From the NCBI GenBank assembly GCA_902793325.1, contig CADBCY010000010.1, positions 30,129-94,128 on the forward strand: a stretch of DNA of 64,000 nucleotides. Direction: 5' to 3'. Numbering within the stretch: position 1 is the first letter of the stretch; each line of letters starts with the position of its first letter. Under the pieces are notes generated by a model that was not told the DNA's origin, did not search any database, and saw only the letters and a program-made list of their open reading frames with translations. Shown here in pieces: positions 55,560-64,000 of the stretch. Position numbers and translations under genes: made by a program. This DNA comes from an uncultured Eubacteriales bacterium. Lineage in GTDB: Bacteria > Bacillota > Clostridia > Christensenellales > Aristaeellaceae.

Positions 55560-56264
55560 TTGAAATCGACTGCGAATCGGGTCGCGCGCTTCGGCCTGCT
55601 GGCGGCGCTGTCGCTGGTGCTGGGCTGGCTGGACCGGGCGATCCCGCTGACGATGCTGCTGAGCGGGGCCGTGCCCGGCATCAAGCTGGGGCTGGCGAAT
55701 ACCGTGCTGCTGTACGGCGTGTACCTGATGGACTGGCGGGGCTGCGTGCTGCTGATGCTGACGAAGGTCTTCCTGTCCGGGTTCCTGTTCGGCTCCCTGA
55801 GCGCCATCCTCTACAGCCTGTGCGGCGGCGTGCTGAGCCTCGCGGTGATGCTGCTGGTCCGGCGGAACCCGCGGGTGGGGGCGCTGGCCATCGCGCTGCT
55901 GGCGGCGCTGAGCGACGCCATGCTGCTCCGGCGGCACCCGAAGCCGGGGGGACAGATGTTCTGGTGCGTGCTGCTCATCGCGCTGGCCTGCGCCGCGGCG
56001 CTGGCGGTGTTCTTCGTCATCCGCCGCCGTCCCGGCCTCGGGGTGATCGGCACCTCGCTGGCGGGGGCCGTGGCGCACAACGTCGGCCAGGTGCTGGCGG
56101 CGAGCTCCGTGCTGCACACGCCCCAATTGCTGTACACCTACCTGCCGGTGCTGGTGGGCATCGGCGCGGCGGTGGGCTGCCTGACGGGCTTCGTGGCGCG
56201 CCGCGTGTTCACGGCGCTGCGGCTGCCCGTCGAAACATCCGGGAATGCGGAGGGTCGCACATGA
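55560..56264 (+). CDS. Gx transporter family membrane protein
   Basis: This 234-aa polytopic protein is often annotated as heptaprenyl diphosphate synthase component I. The N-terminal half (VARFGLLAALSLVLGWLDRAIP, PGIKLGLANTVLLYGVYLM, LLMLTKVFLSGFLFGS) and the end (IGTSLAGAVAHNVGQVLAAS, about 158-177) match the family, which has ECF-type S-component features and co-occurs with apbE and rnf genes. A role in moving a quinone or flavin precursor is guessed. Compared with the usual about 170 aa, an extra 55-60 residues with one or two membrane segments (about 100-158) are inserted. The start is TTG at 55560, with GGAGGAG upstream. It overlaps apbE by 4 bases. Confidence 0.8.
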   Translation: MKSTANRVARFGLLAALSLVLGWLDRAIPLTMLLSGAVPGIKLGLANTVLLYGVYLMDWRGCVLLMLTKVFLSGFLFGSLSAILYSLCGGVLSLAVMLLVRRNPRVGALAIALLAALSDAMLLRRHPKPGGQMFWCVLLIALACAAALAVFFVIRRRPGLGVIGTSLAGAVAHNVGQVLAASSVLHTPQLLYTYLPVLVGIGAAVGCLTGFVARRVFTALRLPVETSGNAEGRT

Positions 56265-57253
56265 GAAACGCTCGCGTTTGGGCGCTGGCCCTGGCGCTGC
56301 TGTGCCTCGTCTCGCTGGCGGGCTGCGGCGGGGCGGAGGCGAAGAAACAGTCCGCCGTGGGCTTCTACCTGGATACGGTCATCACCCTGACCGCCTACGT
56401 GGACGACCCGGCGGTGCTGGAGGACGCGCTGGCGGAGTGCGGGCGCTACGAACGGCTGCTGTCCCGCACCGTGGAGGGCAGCGACGTGTGGCGCGTCAAC
56501 CACGCCGGGGGCGAACCGGTGGAGGTGTCCGCGGACACGCTGAGCATCCTCGACGCCGCCCGGCAGGTCAGCGAGCGCTCCGGCGGGGCCTTCGACGTGA
56601 CCATCGCCCCGGTGTCCACGATGTGGGACTTCACCTCCGGCGCGGCGGCGCTGCCCGACGCGGACGCGCTGCGCGCGGCGGCGGAGCGGGTGGACTACCG
56701 GCAGGTCGCCGTGGACGGCAGCGCCGTCACCCTGCCCGCGGGCATGATGATCGACCTGGGCGGCATCGCCAAGGGCTACATCGCCGACGCCGTGAAGGCG
56801 TACCTGGAGGGCCGCGGCGTGACGAGCGCCATACTGTCCTTCGGCGGGAATATCGTGGCCATCGGCCGCAAGCCCGACGGCACGCCCTGGAAGGTGGGCA
56901 TTCAGGACATCGACCGGCCCACCGGCGCGTACATGCTGGTGGCGCGCAACTTCGGCGGCTCCACCGTCACCAGCGGCATCTACGAGCGCGGCTTCGAGCT
57001 GGACGGCACCTGGTACCACCACATCCTCGATCCCGCGACCGGCTGGCCCGTGCAGAACGAGCTGGCCTCCGTGACCATCTTCTCGGAGAGCTCCATGTGG
57101 GGCGACGCGCTGGCCACCGCGGCCTTCGCGCTGGGCACCGAGAAGGGTGCAGAGCTGATCGAGGAACTGCCGGGCGTCGAGGCGGTGTTCATCGCCCACG
57201 ACCGGTCCGTGACCGCCACCTCCGGCGCGGAGGAATACCTGATGGAATCCTGA
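56261..57253 (+). CDS. apbE: ApbE FAD:protein FMN transferase (lipoprotein)
   Basis: This 330-aa exported lipoprotein (lipobox LAGC, Cys about 22) attaches FMN from FAD through a phosphoester to Thr/Ser in flavoprotein motifs. Typical segments are YLDTVITLTAYVDD, MIDLGGIAKGYIAD (about 163-176), AILSFGGNIVAIG (about 190-202) and HHILDPATGWPV (about 255-266, metal and FAD site). Its probable substrates are encoded just downstream: the triple FMN-binding protein and RnfD. It starts in the ATGA overlap with the Gx gene. Confidence 0.95.
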   Translation: MRNARVWALALALLCLVSLAGCGGAEAKKQSAVGFYLDTVITLTAYVDDPAVLEDALAECGRYERLLSRTVEGSDVWRVNHAGGEPVEVSADTLSILDAARQVSERSGGAFDVTIAPVSTMWDFTSGAAALPDADALRAAAERVDYRQVAVDGSAVTLPAGMMIDLGGIAKGYIADAVKAYLEGRGVTSAILSFGGNIVAIGRKPDGTPWKVGIQDIDRPTGAYMLVARNFGGSTVTSGIYERGFELDGTWYHHILDPATGWPVQNELASVTIFSESSMWGDALATAAFALGTEKGAELIEELPGVEAVFIAHDRSVTATSGAEEYLMES

Positions 57254-57310: not shown

Positions 57311-59215
57311 GTGAACAAGAAACTGCCGACATGGGTTGTGATCCTGGTCGTGCTGGTCTGCGCGGCGCTGCTGCTGAGCGGCGTCAACATGGCGGCCGGC
57401 AGCCGGATCGGGCAGCAGGCGGCGATCGCCGGAAACGCGGTGCGCGCGAGCCTGATCGAGGGCGCGGAGCGCTTTGAGCCGCTGGAGCTCCAGGAGGGCC
57501 GCTACGCGCTGGACAGCCTTTACGCGGGCTATTCCGGCGCGGACGAGCTGCTGGGCTACGTGGGCCAGGCCACCGTCACCGGCTACAACGGACCCGTTGA
57601 GGTCACCGCGGGCGTGGACCCGGCGGGCGTCATCACCGGCGTTTCGGTCGGCGGCGACGAATTCCGCGAGACGCCCGGCCTGGGCGCGCTGACGAAGGAG
57701 GCCGCGTTTACCGGCCAGTTCGCCGGCAAGGGCGCGGGCATCGTGCTGAATTCGGACGGCGTGGACACCGTCGCCGGCGCGTCCATCTCCTCCCGGGCCG
57801 TGGTCAGCGGCGTCAACAGCGTCGTCAACTACGTCGCCACCTATGAGCTGGGCCTGGTGGAGGAAGAGACTCCGACCTTCGTGGGCACGCTGCGCTCGGC
57901 GTCCGGACAGGGCTTCGGCGGCACGGTGACCGCGACCATGGGCCTGGCCGACGACGGCACCGTGGCCTACCTGGCCATCGACACGCCCGACGAGACCGAC
58001 GGCCTGGGCAAGATGGCGTCCGAGCCGGCGTATACCGAGCAGTTCCTCGGCAAGGCCGGGCCGTTCGCCTACGGCGAGGGCGGCATCGAGGCGTTGTCCG
58101 GCGCGACGGTGACCTCCACCGCGGCGCTGGCGCTCATCAACGAGCTCGCGGCGGGCGGCGGCGAGGTGGCCGCGGAGCCGGTGACCGCCACCGCGCAGGG
58201 CTTCGGCGGCCCGGTGACGGTGACGGCGATGCTGAACGCCGATAATTCCATCGCGTCGCTGGCGGTCGATACGCCCGACGAGACCGACGGCCTGGGCAAG
58301 CTGGCCTCCGAACCGGCGTTTACCGACCAGTTCATCGGCAAGTACGCGCCCTTCGCCTACGGCGAGAACGACATCGAGGCGCTCTCCGGCGCGACGTTCA
58401 CGTCCACGGCGGTGATCAACGCGCTGAACGAGGCCGTGCCCGGCGGCGAGGCCGCGGCGCCCGCGTCCGCGCCCGTCGAAGCGCCCGAAGAGCCCGAGGC
58501 ACCCGCGGAGCCCGAGGAGCCCGCAGAGTCTGAGGCGCCCGCGGAGCCTGAAGCACCCGCGGAGCCTGAAACCGAACCGACCGAAGTCGAGGAAGCTGCC
58601 GAGGGCGAAACCGGCGCATACGAGCAGTACATGCGCCCGCGCCCGGTAATCGCGGCGATCGGGGCAGAGACCGAGGCACCGACCGAAGTCGAAGAAGCTG
58701 CCGAGGGCGAAAGCAACGCTTACGAGCAATACATGCGTCCGCGCCCGGCAGGCATCGCTGCTGCGGCGGCAGAGGAACCGACCGAAGTCGAGGAAGCTGC
58801 CGAGGCCGAAAGCGGCGCATACGAGCAGTACATGCGCCCGCGCCCGGTGATCGCGGCGATCGGTGTAGAGGCTGAGGAACCGACCGAAGTCGAAGAGCCT
58901 GCCGAGGCCGAAAGCGGCGCATACGAACAGTACATGCGCCCGCGCCCGGTGATTGCGGCCATCGGGGCAGAGGTTGAGGAACCGACCGAAGTCGAAGAAG
59001 AGGCTGCGGATGCCGCCGAGGAACCGACCGAAGTCGAGGAAGCTGCCGAGGCTGAAACTGGCGCATACGAGCAGTACATGCGCCCGCGCCCGGTGCTCGC
59101 CGGGGGCGACGATGCGGCGGAAGCGCCCGAAGCGGAGCCCGCGGCGGACGAAGCCGATGCGGCGGAAACCTCCTTCTATGAAAAGTACATGCGCCCCAGG
59201 CCGTTCGCGGCGTGA
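57311..59215 (+). CDS. Triple FMN-binding-domain (RnfG-like) protein with repeat-motif tail
   Basis: This 634-aa protein has one N-terminal membrane anchor (about 8-26) and then lies outside the membrane. Three FMN_bind domains follow: about 80-176 (acceptor motif AGASIS, S160), 198-278 (SGATVT, T268) and 296-374 (SGATFT, T364). Domains 2 and 3 are near-duplicates sharing TPDETDGLGK-ASEPA. Residues 380-634 form a Pro/Glu/Ala tail with six copies of YE(Q/K)YMRPRP starting at 437, 471, 504, 538, 585 and 623, separated by acidic EEPTEVEEAAEAES-like spacers. It takes the place of RnfG (usually about 200 aa, one FMN) in this rnf operon but lies upstream of rnfC. GTG 57311 has AGGGGGAAGGG upstream; the overlapping ATG runs into a stop. 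The tail is unlike any family I know. Confidence 0.87.
   Translation: MNKKLPTWVVILVVLVCAALLLSGVNMAAGSRIGQQAAIAGNAVRASLIEGAERFEPLELQEGRYALDSLYAGYSGADELLGYVGQATVTGYNGPVEVTAGVDPAGVITGVSVGGDEFRETPGLGALTKEAAFTGQFAGKGAGIVLNSDGVDTVAGASISSRAVVSGVNSVVNYVATYELGLVEEETPTFVGTLRSASGQGFGGTVTATMGLADDGTVAYLAIDTPDETDGLGKMASEPAYTEQFLGKAGPFAYGEGGIEALSGATVTSTAALALINELAAGGGEVAAEPVTATAQGFGGPVTVTAMLNADNSIASLAVDTPDETDGLGKLASEPAFTDQFIGKYAPFAYGENDIEALSGATFTSTAVINALNEAVPGGEAAAPASAPVEAPEEPEAPAEPEEPAESEAPAEPEAPAEPETEPTEVEEAAEGETGAYEQYMRPRPVIAAIGAETEAPTEVEEAAEGESNAYEQYMRPRPAGIAAAAAEEPTEVEEAAEAESGAYEQYMRPRPVIAAIGVEAEEPTEVEEPAEAESGAYEQYMRPRPVIAAIGAEVEEPTEVEEEAADAAEEPTEVEEAAEAETGAYEQYMRPRPVLAGGDDAAEAPEAEPAADEADAAETSFYEKYMRPRPFAA
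58619..59203 (+). repeat. Six-copy coding repeat of the YEQYMRPRP motif
   Basis: Repeat units of about 99-140 bases each encode the 9-residue motif plus an acidic spacer. The motif codons (TACGAGCAGTACATGCGC or close) are almost invariant while spacers vary in length, with start-to-start distances of 34, 33, 34, 47 and 38 residues. Confidence 0.85.
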
Positions 59216-59283
59216 GCGCGTTCCCGAAAGTGATCGGCGGGACGACCGCCGGATTCGATGATTGACAACTGGAGGTGCTGACA

Positions 59284-60627
59284 TTGTCGAGCAACAGAAC
59301 CTTTCGCGGGGGCGTGCATCCGCTGCATGGCTCGCACGAGGGCAAGGCGCCAACGCGCGGCGAAGCGGTGCGCGACTACATCGCGCAGACCGTGACCATA
59401 CTGATGGGCATGCACCTGGGCGCGCCCAGCACGCCCTGCGTGCAGGTGGGTGACCACGTGAAGCTGGGCCAGCCCATCGGCGAGCCCGTCGGCTTCCTGG
59501 GCCTGCCGGTGCACGCCAGCGTGTCCGGCGAGGTGGTTGCCGTCGGCCCGGTGCAGTCGGTGACCAACCCCTCCGCCATGGCCGTGACCATCAAAAACGA
59601 CTTCAAGGACGAGTGGGTGCCGCTGAATCCCCTGGGCGATGTGGAGACCTGCCCGGCGGACCAGATCGTGCCCGCCATCAAGGCCGCGGGCGTGTGCGGC
59701 ATGGGCGGCGCGTCCTTCCCGACGCACGTGAAGTTCGCGGTGAAGGAAGGGCAGTACTGCGACACCATCATTCTCAACGGCGCGGAGTGCGAAACCCACC
59801 TGACCTGCGACCACCGGCTGATGCTGGAGGACAGCAAGCGCATCGTGGACGGCCTGCGCGCCGCCATGCGGGCCCTGGGCGTGAAGAAGGGCGTCATCGC
59901 CATCGAGGACAACAAGCCCGACGCCATCGAAGCCATGCGCAAGGCGGCGCAGGGTCGCGAGGGCGTGGAGGTCATGCCGCTTCTGACCAAGTACCCGCAG
60001 GGCGGTGAGAAGCAGCTGATCCACGTGGTGACGGGCCGCGAGGTGCCCACCAAGAAGCTGCCGCTGGACGTGCACGTGATCGTGCTGAACGTGGGCACGG
60101 CCAAGGCCATCGCCGACGCGGTGATCGACGGCCGCCCGCTCATCTCGCGCATTACCACCGTGACCGGCCACGTGAAGAAGCCCTCGAACCTCCGGGTCCG
60201 CGTGGGCACGCCGGTGTCCGACCTGATCCGGGAGTGCGGCGGCTACAGCATCCCCGAGAGCGACGTCGGCAAAGTGGTCATGGGCGGCGCGATGACCGGC
60301 TTCCCCTGCCCGCACGACCGCGTGCCGGTGGCCAAGGCCAACAACGGCGTGGTGGTGTACAGCCAGCGCGAGGCCGTGGAGCTGGAGGAATCGCCCTGCA
60401 TCCGCTGCGGGCGCTGCATCGACGCCTGCCCCATCGGGCTGAATCCCTGCAAACTGAAATACCTCTGCGACGCGGGCGACATGAAGCGCGCCGGCGAGGA
60501 AAACGTGATGGACTGCGTGGTCTGCGGAAGCTGTTCCTATATTTGCCCGGCCCGCCGCAGGCTGACGACGTCGTTTAAGGCCATGAAGGACAAGATCGCC
60601 GCGGAGGCGAGGAAAGGAAAGGGGTAA
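59284..60627 (+). CDS. rnfC: Rnf complex subunit C
   Basis: This 447-aa peripheral subunit is the NADH-side module of the Rnf ion-translocating ferredoxin:NAD oxidoreductase. It shows FRGGVHPLHGSHEGK (about 6-20), the FMN/NADH-binding region AAGVCGMGGASFPTHVK (about 135-151), NGAECETHLTCDHRLML and two 4Fe-4S motifs near the C-terminus (CIRCGRCIDACPIGLNPC and CVVCGSCSYICP). TTG at 59284 is chosen: GGAGG lies 8 bases upstream and the protein then begins MSSNRTFRGGVHP as in homologues. The upstream 68-base gap holds no other feature. Confidence 0.95.
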   Translation: MSSNRTFRGGVHPLHGSHEGKAPTRGEAVRDYIAQTVTILMGMHLGAPSTPCVQVGDHVKLGQPIGEPVGFLGLPVHASVSGEVVAVGPVQSVTNPSAMAVTIKNDFKDEWVPLNPLGDVETCPADQIVPAIKAAGVCGMGGASFPTHVKFAVKEGQYCDTIILNGAECETHLTCDHRLMLEDSKRIVDGLRAAMRALGVKKGVIAIEDNKPDAIEAMRKAAQGREGVEVMPLLTKYPQGGEKQLIHVVTGREVPTKKLPLDVHVIVLNVGTAKAIADAVIDGRPLISRITTVTGHVKKPSNLRVRVGTPVSDLIRECGGYSIPESDVGKVVMGGAMTGFPCPHDRVPVAKANNGVVVYSQREAVELEESPCIRCGRCIDACPIGLNPCKLKYLCDAGDMKRAGEENVMDCVVCGSCSYICPARRRLTTSFKAMKDKIAAEARKGKG

Positions 60628-61548: not shown

Positions 61549-62171
61549 TGGCTGAGATGAACACTTCCCTGGGCGCGAGGGTCGAAACCGCCCTGACGAC
61601 GAAGAACCCGGCGCTTCGCCTGGCGCTTGGCGCGTGCCCGCTGCTGGCGGTCGCCACGCGCGCGGCGAGCAGCCTGGGCATGGGCGTCGCCACCGCCTGC
61701 GCGCTGGTCTGCGCCGCGCTGTTCGGCGCGATTTTCGGAAAGATCACCCCGGAAAAGGGCCGCCTGCCCGTGTTCCTGCTCATCTGCGCCGCCTTCGCGG
61801 GCGCCGCGCACATGGTGCTGCAGGGCTGGTTCCCCGCGGTGAGCGAGGGCCTGGGCCTGTACGCGCCGATGATCGCCGTGAGCTGCCTGTTCCTGGGCGG
61901 CGCCGGGCGCATCGGCGAGGACGGCATCGGCAAGGCCCTGGCGGACGCCGTCGGCATGGGCGTGGGCTTCATCTGCCTGATGACGGCGCTCGGCGCGGTG
62001 CGCGAGCTGATCGGCTGCGGCACGGTGTTCGGCGCGGCGGTGCTGCCCGCGGGCTTCGAGCCGATGCTGATGCTGGCCATGCCCGCCGGCGGGTTCCTCG
62101 CGCTGGGGCTGCTGATGGGCGTGTGCAACGCCGTTTCCGGCAGGAATAAGAAGAAGGGGGCGTCGGCATGA
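61548..62171 (+). CDS. rnfE: Rnf complex subunit E
   Basis: This 207-aa membrane subunit has six predicted segments. The N-terminal LGACPLLAVATRA and the paired Cys-bearing helices (for example FGLYAPMIAVSCLFLGGA-like region about 103-120) are as in RnfE/NqrD, which with RnfA forms the intramembrane Fe-S site and ion channel. It overlaps rnfA by 4 bases (ATGA). Confidence 0.93.
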   Translation: MAEMNTSLGARVETALTTKNPALRLALGACPLLAVATRAASSLGMGVATACALVCAALFGAIFGKITPEKGRLPVFLLICAAFAGAAHMVLQGWFPAVSEGLGLYAPMIAVSCLFLGGAGRIGEDGIGKALADAVGMGVGFICLMTALGAVRELIGCGTVFGAAVLPAGFEPMLMLAMPAGGFLALGLLMGVCNAVSGRNKKKGASA

Positions 62172-62749
62172 GCGATTTTTCCCGCATACTGCTGTTCCTG
62201 GTGAGCTGCGTGTTCACCCAAAACATCGTGTTTGCCCGTGCGCTGGGCTTTACCGCCATGGGTGACGAGCGCCGCGTGGAGACCGCCGCGGGCTACGGCC
62301 TGGTTGTGGCGCTGGCGATGACGCTGTCCTCCGCGCTGGCGTGGCTGCTGGACATGCTGGTGCTGGTGCCGGCGGGCATGATTCACCTGCGCATCGTGGC
62401 CTTCGCGCTGGCGGTGCTGGTGGCCGTGTGGCTGGTGGAAAAGCTCGCGGTGGCGGCGCGGCCCGCACTGGCGGAGTCGCTGGGCGGGAGCCTGATGCCC
62501 GTCGCGGCCAACTGCGCGCTGCTGGGCATCGCCGTGCTGAACTACGAGGCGGGCTACACGCTGGGCCAGGCGGTGCTGTCCGGGCTGTTCGGCGGCCTGG
62601 GCTTCCTGGTCGCCATCGTGCTGATGGCGGGCGTGCAGGAGCGCCTGGAGACCTCCCGGATTCCCGAGACCCTCAAGGGCATGCCCATCGCGCTGATCTC
62701 CGCGTCGCTGATCGCCCTGGCCTTCATGGGCTTTACGGGCATCGCGTGA
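62168..62749 (+). CDS. rnfA: Rnf complex subunit A
   Basis: This 193-aa membrane subunit is homologous to NqrE. It has FTQNIVFARALGF (about 16-28), MIHLRIVAFALAVLVAVWLVE and VAANCALLGIAVLN (about 112-125, containing the conserved intramembrane Cys), and ends MPIALISASLIALAFMGFTG. In standard operons rnfB follows; here the next gene is a NusG-II lipoprotein instead. Confidence 0.95.
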   Translation: MSDFSRILLFLVSCVFTQNIVFARALGFTAMGDERRVETAAGYGLVVALAMTLSSALAWLLDMLVLVPAGMIHLRIVAFALAVLVAVWLVEKLAVAARPALAESLGGSLMPVAANCALLGIAVLNYEAGYTLGQAVLSGLFGGLGFLVAIVLMAGVQERLETSRIPETLKGMPIALISASLIALAFMGFTGIA

Positions 62750-62761
62750 CGGAGGAAGGCC

Positions 62762-63202
62762 ATGGAGAAACTGAGCAGATGCCTCCTGGCGCTGCTGGCG
62801 GCGCTCTCGCTGTGCGCCTGCGCGGCGGCGGAGGAGGCGAAGCCCGAGGCGGAGGCGGGGCAGGAAGCGCCCTCGCCCGCCAGCGCCTACGTGCTGGTGA
62901 CCACCGCGACCGGCAGGGGCTGGCTGCCGCTCCCCGAGGAAGGGGAGCAGTCCTTCCCGCTCACGCAGGTGCTCCCCGACGGCACGGAGGCGGTGAACGT
63001 CATTCACCTGACGCCCACGGGCGTGTACATGGAGGATTCCACCTGCGAGAACCACGACTGCGTCCAGCAGGGCGAGGTGACGCTGGAAAACCGGGGCGAC
63101 CGCATCCTGGGCAACATGATCATCTGCCTGCCCAACCAGGTGGTGCTGGCCCTCTACACGCCGGAGGAAGTGCTGGAGCTGGTTCAGGGCGAGGGACAGT
63201 GA
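62762..63202 (+). CDS. NusG domain II lipoprotein (last of Rnf operon)
   Basis: This 146-aa exported protein has a signal peptide with lipobox-like LCAC (Cys about 20), a short acidic linker and a NusG-II domain with CENHDCVQQGEVTLENRG (about 100-117) and NMIICLPNQVVLALY. It is a paralogue of the operon's first gene (CENQDCV there), so two such proteins bracket the redox genes. ATG at 62762 follows rnfA by 12 bases, with GGAGG upstream. Confidence 0.88.
   Translation: MEKLSRCLLALLAALSLCACAAAEEAKPEAEAGQEAPSPASAYVLVTTATGRGWLPLPEEGEQSFPLTQVLPDGTEAVNVIHLTPTGVYMEDSTCENHDCVQQGEVTLENRGDRILGNMIICLPNQVVLALYTPEEVLELVQGEGQ

Positions 63203-63349: not shown

Positions 63350-64000
<651 letters not shown>

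What the first reader, a model, noticed from the sequence alone, without database searches (positions are those of the whole stretch)
57311..59215. RnfG-like protein with three FMN domains and a six-copy YEQYMRPRP tail
An Rnf-locus protein about three times the normal RnfG length carries three covalent-FMN motifs and a 250-residue extracytoplasmic Pro/Glu tail in which an identical aromatic-basic motif recurs six times between acidic spacers. The motif is conserved at the protein level while spacers vary in length, which suggests selection on a short binding motif, perhaps docking sites for a partner, the wall or a redox shuttle. I know of no described protein with this tail.
Basis: partly seen in the sequence, partly recalled or inferred. 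Interest (0 to 1): 0.82.

Follow-up and report, generated by a model that had tools for sequence, protein, structure and literature searches.

The report
Transferable motif array on electron-transfer proteins
An outer-surface electron-transfer protein carries a probably floppy tail with six copies of one short motif, and in sister species the same kind of motif array sits on a nitrite-reducing enzyme or a small separate protein instead, so it looks like a movable attachment module for bacterial respiration outside the membrane.

Summary
ORF 57311-59215 is a 634-aa RnfG-type protein with three FMN_bind domains and a 259-aa acidic tail holding YEQYMRPRP five times and YEKYMRPRP once. The motif core is constrained between copies (pN/pS 0.14). 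The locus is ApbE-RnfG-C-D-E-A without RnfB. Multi-flavinylated RnfG proteins were described in 2021, so only the tail is new. A relaxed motif (about D-x-S-R-[YFL]-M-R-x-R-P) occurs in 20 of 28 genomes of the genus, on one protein per genome: this RnfG (6), the pentahaem nitrite reductase NrfA itself (12), or a separate membrane protein (2). Two genomes of a second genus also have the separate form. A three-copy pattern scan of 84,980 species genomes found acidic-spacer arrays only in this genus (6 of 57 matching stretches). The separate protein is homologous to the N-terminal extension of motif-bearing NrfA. I therefore read the array as a transferable, multivalent docking module of extracytoplasmic flavin/haem electron transfer. 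What it binds is not shown.

The parts
57311..59215 (+). RnfG2: N-terminal membrane anchor, three FMN_bind domains, acidic tail with motif array (634 aa)
57581..57826 (+). FMN_bind domain 1 (site AGAS)
   Evidence: Pfam best stretch 91-172; sequence
57893..58144 (+). FMN_bind domain 2 (site SGAT); limits approximate
   Evidence: three stretches; limits read from alignment
58178..58438 (+). FMN_bind domain 3 (site SGAT); limits approximate
   Evidence: (stretch 290-376)
58436..59212 (+). Acidic E/A/P-rich tail, 259 aa
58619..58645 (+). motif copy 1 YEQYMRPRP
58721..58747 (+). motif copy 2 YEQYMRPRP
58820..58846 (+). motif copy 3 YEQYMRPRP
58922..58948 (+). motif copy 4 YEQYMRPRP
59066..59092 (+). 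motif copy 5 YEQYMRPRP
59177..59203 (+). motif copy 6 YEKYMRPRP, near the C-terminus
56261..57253 (+). ApbE flavin transferase
   Evidence: PF02424 1.1e-85
59275..60627 (+). RnfC2
   Evidence: TIGR01945 481 bits
60634..61548 (+). RnfD2
   Evidence: TIGR01946 284.8 bits
61548..62171 (+). RnfE2-like (Rnf-Nqr subunit, below the NCBIfam cut-off)
62168..62749 (+). RnfA2-like (Rnf-Nqr subunit, below the NCBIfam cut-off)
62762..63202 (+). NusG domain II protein
   Evidence: PF07009
55079..55531 (+). NusG domain II protein
   Evidence: PF07009
55560..56264 (+). Gx-type transporter / Hpre_diP_synt_I
   Evidence: PF07456

Best explanation
RnfG2 is the multi-flavinylated extracytoplasmic subunit of an RnfB-less Rnf-type complex (RnfCDGEA) that, by inference, moves electrons from NADH through RnfC and RnfD to covalent flavins outside the membrane. 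Its tail is a transferable multivalent array of a short linear motif (about D-x-S-R-[YFL]-M-R-x-R-P, basic and hydrophobic, between acidic spacers that are probably disordered) that docks or tethers redox partners next to the flavin carrier. The most likely partner set is the nitrite reductase NrfA and/or the FMN/FAD reductase encoded in several of the same loci. In the sister clade the same array is fused to NrfA, so the contact that RnfG2 makes in trans would be made in cis or between neighbouring NrfA molecules. Shown: the array, the constraint on it, the locus, the swap of carriers, and homology between the separate array protein and the NrfA extension. Inferred: direction of electron flow, disorder, that the motif binds a protein, and which one.
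For: Core pN/pS is below the upstream flank in 12 of 12 arrays where a ratio exists (13 tested; G025 has no ratio) and below the downstream flank in 10 of 12; the exceptions are G001 (weak throughout: core 0.81, up 0.92, down 0.55) and G070 (0.17, 0.30, 0.16). Motif in 20 of 28 genus genomes at E<=0.01, on one protein per genome: RnfG2 6, NrfA 12, separate 2. Rnf2, marked by RnfD2, is found in 9 of 28 genomes, all with unextended NrfA. A branch with support 100/100 in the NrfA tree parts 12 genomes with unextended NrfA from 15 with extended NrfA. The separate array protein (G015) is homologous to the N-terminal extension of NrfA (G013), 55% over 130 aa: a fission/fusion link between array protein and NrfA. 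Similarity of units between genomes hardly depends on the carrier: 0.42 same carrier, 0.40 different (one false unit of G021 was left in this figure). Array position differs: C-terminal on RnfG2, between FMN_bind-like part and haem domain of NrfA, or C-terminal on NrfA in G014 and G027. The carriers without haem lie in ApbE, Gx, NusG_II or FMN/FAD-reductase loci where enough contig is held.
Against: No partner identified. NrfA is in 27 of 28 genomes anyway, so co-occurrence with NrfA is uninformative. 8 of 28 genomes have no motif at E<=0.01, among them G005 with NrfA but neither array nor Rnf2, so the array is dispensable; G064 of a second genus also has an unextended NrfA and no motif match. 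In 3 of 9 RnfG2 proteins the array is replaced by one or more further FMN_bind-like domains, which a pure docking role does not predict. The carrier swap rests on one deep split, not on many independent events. A scan for NrfA columns changed where the array is lost was not significant: 4 columns, control mean 1.4, 17 of 200 controls as high. G070 has the separate array but no RnfD was detected (85% complete), and the NrfA of G070 and G099 is a short form with no Rnf genes in the stretch held. No structure prediction could be run.
Confidence: 0.45

Rival explanations
1. Stickers and spacers: Tyr/Phe-Arg motifs in acidic spacers make the tails stick to each other, so that flavin and haem carriers cluster into a dense redox mesh outside the membrane. 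No dedicated receptor is needed.
For: Motif is aromatic or aliphatic plus Arg, and the spacers of the window tail are acidic with no K/R; copy number varies 1-11 and the carrier hardly matters; position in the carrier differs.
Against: Copies keep a fixed register rather than a loose composition: in the window five of five spacer-anchored copies are intact. Across genomes the register was partly demanded by my search pattern, so this is moderate evidence. G021 uses Leu instead of aromatics in all 9 copies; G019 and G027 keep only one clear copy.
Confidence: 0.2
2. Wall positioning: basic motifs bind anionic wall polymers while acidic spacers keep the chain extended, so that flavin domains or NrfA reach across the cell wall.
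For: Carriers have an N-terminal hydrophobic anchor (read from sequence); basic residues only in motifs in the window tail; array interchangeable with extra domains in RnfG2; PMC8238504 (passages) describes wall-binding domains in multi-flavinylated clusters.
Against: No known wall-binding domain: one search found only FMN_bind in the window protein. Non-specific electrostatics would not need a conserved hydrophobic-x-R-x-R-P string. Envelope type of these bacteria not established here.
Confidence: 0.17
3. Each motif is a non-covalent cofactor or shuttle site (flavin, haem, quinone), so that the array is itself an electron path that can be replaced by covalent FMN domains.
For: Arrays and extra FMN_bind-like repeats replace each other on RnfG2 in G003, G004, G012; many copies have aromatic, Met and Arg residues.
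Against: Met is Thr/Val/Ala in G007, G008, G009, G017, G025 and the aromatic is Leu in G021, so neither a Met ligand nor a stacking ring is conserved.
Confidence: 0.06
4. The tail is a low-complexity spacer that grows and shrinks by replication slippage; the motif is a by-product.
For: Units are more alike within a genome (0.64) than between (0.41); copy number varies; near-identical repeats in G026; decayed copies in G006, G027, G099.
Against: Low pN/pS in the core with synonymous divergence (biased by unit choice); same core on three kinds of carrier and in two genera; acidic-spacer arrays not found elsewhere.
Confidence: 0.1

Closest known systems
RnfG (TIGR01947; solved RnfG chains 7zc6_G, 9eri_G)
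   Same: N-terminal anchor plus FMN_bind domain; passes the family cut-off; residues 9-177 match 7zc6_G, 5.7e-16
   Different: Two further FMN_bind domains and a 259-aa motif tail; no RnfB in the locus
Multi-flavinylated RnfG proteins (Meheust et al. 2021, PMC8238504; passages read)
   Same: RnfG with several FMN_bind domains in Rnf clusters
   Different: No motif array mentioned in the passages read
Christensenellales multi-flavinylated RnfG with a multi-haem domain (same paper, one sentence and a figure legend)
   Same: Probably the same kind of fusion as the extended NrfA proteins seen here after RnfC-DG-E-A-B (inference)
   Different: The paper's main text does not name NrfA (0 occurrences); the motif array and its carrier swap are not mentioned in the passages read
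Multi-flavinylated proteins SaFMN3 and CbFMN4 (PMC10339131; passages)
   Same: Three or four covalent-FMN domains with flexible linkers
   Different: No motif array mentioned in the passages read
Motif arrays such as NPF repeats bound by EH domains (abstract in listing) or FPPPP repeats of ActA (recalled)
   Same: Short linear motif repeated in a disordered or acidic region for multivalent docking
   Different: Only an analogy; no sequence relation claimed and no known receptor here

Membership tests
RnfG | Sequence model TIGR01947 over its cut-off | tested here: met
   117.6 bits against 102
RnfG | Gene beside rnfC, rnfD, rnfE, rnfA | tested here: met
   RnfE2 and RnfA2 score below their NCBIfam cut-offs but pass PF02508
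RnfG | S/T-G-A-S/T flavinylation site in the FMN_bind domain | tested here: met
   SGAT in domains 2 and 3; domain 1 has AGAS, so it departs at the first residue
Complete Rnf complex (ferredoxin:NAD) | RnfB ferredoxin-side subunit in the locus | tested here: not met
   No RnfB cysteine signature in the window's six frames; an RnfB (TIGR01944) is in the other Rnf operon, G000:C38. The window ends at a contig end.
Complete Rnf complex (ferredoxin:NAD) | Ferredoxin:NAD activity and ion pumping | not testable with these tools
   none
Multi-flavinylated RnfG (PMC8238504) | More than one FMN_bind domain in an RnfG | tested here: met
   3 stretches of PF04205
Multi-flavinylated RnfG (PMC8238504) | Covalent FMN on each domain | not testable with these tools
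   ApbE is adjacent; attachment not shown
NrfA (carrier of the array in the sister clade) | Five haem sites with CxxCK as the first, homology to solved NrfA | tested here: met
   CLTCK plus four CxxCH in the three proteins listed, G000, G013, G018; G000 NrfA matches 3ubr 1.9e-51 and 1gu6 3.1e-50
Short-linear-motif docking array | Motif under constraint, spacers free | tested here: met
   choosing units by motif biases this; spacer-anchored check
Short-linear-motif docking array | A receptor binds the motif | not tested
Wall-anchored protein | Known wall-binding domain (SLH, LysM, Rib, FIVAR) | tested here: not met
   only FMN_bind found in the window protein at E<=0.001

The most novel reading that the evidence does not exclude
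The array is a dedicated, portable plug of extracytoplasmic respiration: one motif code per lineage, carried by the flavin donor (RnfG2), by the haem acceptor (NrfA) or by a separate adaptor, which assembles the flavin and haem carriers of one bacterial family into a shared redox assembly outside the membrane.
Probability: 0.3. Interest if true: 0.82.

Novelty: new variant of a known kind. Interest (0 to 1): 0.62.

Why it matters
How multi-flavinylated proteins and NrfA hand electrons to each other outside the membrane in bacteria of this kind is, as far as I found, open. A motif array that moves between the flavin donor and the nitrite reductase gives a direct, peptide-level handle on which proteins meet there. 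Nitrite ammonification and organic-acceptor respiration compete for electrons in the rumen (recalled), so the wiring has practical interest too.

Tried and rejected
Mimicry of NrfA: the NrfA segment DVAKTQRPHP before the first haem resembles the motif and ranks high among 170,072 scored 10-mers, but it scores 8.4 against 24.7-32.1 for the three real units scored beside it, and it is DVHKTLRPHA (0.8) in this genome; not supported.

Receptor site on NrfA: columns conserved with the array and changed without it, 4 found, control mean 1.4, 17 of 200 controls as high; not significant.

DUF1622 protein beside RnfG2 as receptor: seen in 5 of the 9 Rnf2 loci, with both tail types (only one copy tested by Pfam, the others by eye); rejected.

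Motif elsewhere. Order sample: 7 of 396 genomes matched, 4 of this genus and 3 of another family; those 3 are in a protein that I recognise by eye as UvrA, one copy each, taken as chance. Phylum sample: 1 of 398, this genome. Of 57 stretches in the genome-contig scan, 51 are, read by eye, DNA repeats or low-complexity frames without acidic-spacer arrays. That pattern recovers only 7 of the 20 array loci it was tried on, so it would miss many; records of the window's own genome may be left out of that scan. The tighter pattern YMRPRP in the genus hit 10 of 28 genomes; 6 of these hold arrays it belongs to, and single hits in G005, G009, G016, G020 and a second place in G001 lie, where I printed them (4 of 5; nothing was printed for G020), in short frames of 57-147 aa; I took them as chance, the reversed control giving 2 hits. 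A weak hit G006:C41 in a 75-aa frame, out of frame with the predicted gene there, was dropped. Six family genomes with a single weak hit (G081, G117, G127, G232, G235, G253) showed no array in the frames printed (nothing was printed for G117 and G235, whose frames are under 60 aa) and were dropped.

Literature: no paper with the motif found; the string MRPRP occurs in 5 papers, and the 4 listed are unrelated by title. Other searches.

Full report
What is there. The ORF at 57311-59215 encodes 634 aa: a membrane anchor, three FMN_bind domains and a 259-aa tail. It passes the RnfG model. The six motif copies are YEQYMRPRP (5) and YEKYMRPRP (1). All basic residues of the tail and all its Met are in the motifs, and the spacers are acidic. 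Gene order is NusG_II, Gx-type transporter, ApbE, RnfG2, RnfC, RnfD, RnfE, RnfA, NusG_II. No RnfB signature is found in the window, which ends at a contig end. The genome also has a second operon on contig C38: RnfC, an RnfD-RnfG fusion, RnfE, RnfA, RnfB, NrfA, ResB and a cytochrome assembly protein (RnfE and RnfA of this operon named by eye).

More than chance. The DNA pattern hits this genome six times, all in this gene; its reversed control hits none. Core pN/pS is 0.14 against 0.40 upstream and 0.68 downstream. Because the units were found by a motif pattern, the core value is biased down; the spacer-anchored check found five of five copies intact.

Recurrence in the genus (28 genomes held). 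A motif model (A2, 18 positions) finds 20 of 28 genomes at E<=0.01. Reading the frames, the motif sits on: RnfG2 in G000 (6 copies), G021 (9), G001 (6), G006 (5 and a decayed one), G026 (11, with only two FMN_bind domains) and G011 (3 in a fragment at a contig end, followed by RnfC-D-E-A); on NrfA in G013 (6), G018 (8), G002 (2), G024 (3), G019 (1), G007 (2), G017 (2, plus 1 on another contig piece), G025 (4), G008 (6), G009 (5), G014 (4, C-terminal, in a frame that is broken upstream) and G027 (1 and a decayed one, C-terminal); on a separate protein in G015 (8) and G023 (8). No genome has it on two proteins, one weak hit in G006 being dropped. Variants in one NrfA subgroup read RFTRPRP, RFVRPRP or RFARPRP. 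The pattern behind the unit table demanded Arg at +2, so its invariance is no finding; decayed copies exist, such as RLMRQRL in G006 and RMLRPRS in G027. Asp at -4 is in 76 of 102 matched units, one of which is a false match in G021.

The eight genomes without the motif: G003, G004 and G012 have RnfG2 with one or more further FMN_bind-like repeats in place of the array; G010, G016 and G020 have NrfA with FMN_bind-like extension but no motif (G020 is cut by a contig end); G005 has neither Rnf2 nor motif; G022 has no NrfA match.

Two clades. NrfA is in 27 of 28 genomes. In the tree of 27 NrfA domains one branch with support 100/100 parts 12 with unextended NrfA from 15 with extended NrfA. Rnf2, marked by RnfD2, is in 9 of 28, all with unextended NrfA. 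Because this is one deep split, the mutual exclusion is not many independent events: the tree needs 3 changes for 'array on NrfA' and 2 for 'array on RnfG2'.

Separate form. In G015 and G023 the locus is that of the window without the RnfG-C-D-E-A block: FMN/FAD reductase and array protein on one side, then NusG_II, Gx, ApbE, NusG_II. The array protein of G015 is homologous to the N-terminal extension of the motif-bearing NrfA of G013: 55% over 130 aa in the anchor and FMN_bind-like part. That part is not recognised by Pfam (G015 only), so the array protein may not be redox-active itself. A related separate protein with 8 copies is in G070, and one with 3 copies and two decayed ones is in G099, both of a second genus of the family. 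Beside G070's lie an FMN/FAD reductase (Pfam), NusG_II and Gx genes; beside G099's lie pieces that look like ApbE and Gx (by eye). In that second genus NrfA was found in 10 of 13 genomes searched. Of the six frames read, five carry FMN_bind-like beads (by eye), one (G064) is unextended, and none has the motif; G070 and G099 have short NrfA.

Breadth. Order sample: 7 of 396 genomes matched at E<=0.001, 4 of this genus and 3 single matches in UvrA. Phylum sample: 1 of 398, this one. The pattern recovers 7 of 20 known array loci, so this scan is specific rather than complete. RUG names point to rumen assemblies (recalled). Tools did not name the order; Christensenellales is inferred from PMC8238504.

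What is already in print. Meheust et al. 2021 (PMC8238504, passages read) describe multi-flavinylated RnfG proteins and a subset in Christensenellales with a multi-haem domain, which is probably the extended-NrfA form. The main text does not hold the word NrfA. The mSystems 2024 paper (PMC11334425, passages) and the BBA Advances 2023 paper (PMC10339131, passages) treat multi-FMN proteins without such a tail in the passages read. Searches found no description of the motif in this library.

How it probably works. Without RnfB the complex probably takes electrons from NADH at RnfC through RnfD to RnfG2 (inferred from known Rnf topology). The three flavin beads pass them on outside the membrane. 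The tail is best read as a multivalent docking array. The reasons are the constrained core, free spacers, differing position and exchange between carriers; similarity of units depends on the genome (0.64 within, 0.41 between) and hardly on the carrier (0.42 same, 0.40 different, one false unit left in). NrfA is favoured as partner because array and NrfA are fused in one clade and separate in the other; the FMN/FAD reductase beside the array genes of G021, G026, G015, G023 and G070 is the alternative. NrfA domains are strongly acidic (net -25 to -35), which fits a basic motif but is weak evidence. Against a simple docking story stand the replacement by FMN-like repeats, the absence from 8 genomes, G064 with neither extension nor motif, and the failed search for a receptor site.

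Limits. Most genomes are fragmented assemblies. Copy numbers at contig ends are minima. Gene calls in relatives come from a simple codon-usage script. All function is inferred.

Noticed in passing
window 63367-63999 (-), at the contig end: C-terminal part of what looks like a flavocytochrome-c-like FAD reductase; the reading frame changes inside it, and its end ([15 protein letters not shown]) is close to that of an FMN-bearing 832-aa protein of G011:C2. Pfam and NCBIfam found nothing in the open part.
   Followed up: partly
L112 4538-10912 (G000:C38): Second Rnf operon with RnfD fused to RnfG (525 aa), then RnfE, RnfA, RnfB, NrfA, followed by ResB and a cytochrome assembly protein; Rnf seems wired directly to nitrite ammonification in the genus.
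   Followed up: partly
L266 6764-9454 (-) (G082:C1): One frame joins what looks like a FAD-dependent reductase domain (GAGGAGMTAA) to a five-haem NrfA-like part, in a second genus; not scanned against family libraries.
   Followed up: no
L063 12239-15024, L064 13064-15769 (G023, G015): Same NusG_II-Gx-ApbE-NusG_II locus as the window with the RnfG-C-D-E-A block absent, so the block seems to come and go as a unit.
   Followed up: partly
L050, L053, L054, L055, L056: A ~105-aa DUF1622 membrane protein sits between RnfG2 and RnfC in 5 of 9 Rnf2 loci (Pfam run on one; others by eye).
   Followed up: partly
L260, L262 and relatives (second genus): NrfA with strings of FMN_bind-like domains on its N- or C-terminal side, in frames of up to about 1150 aa.
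   Followed up: no
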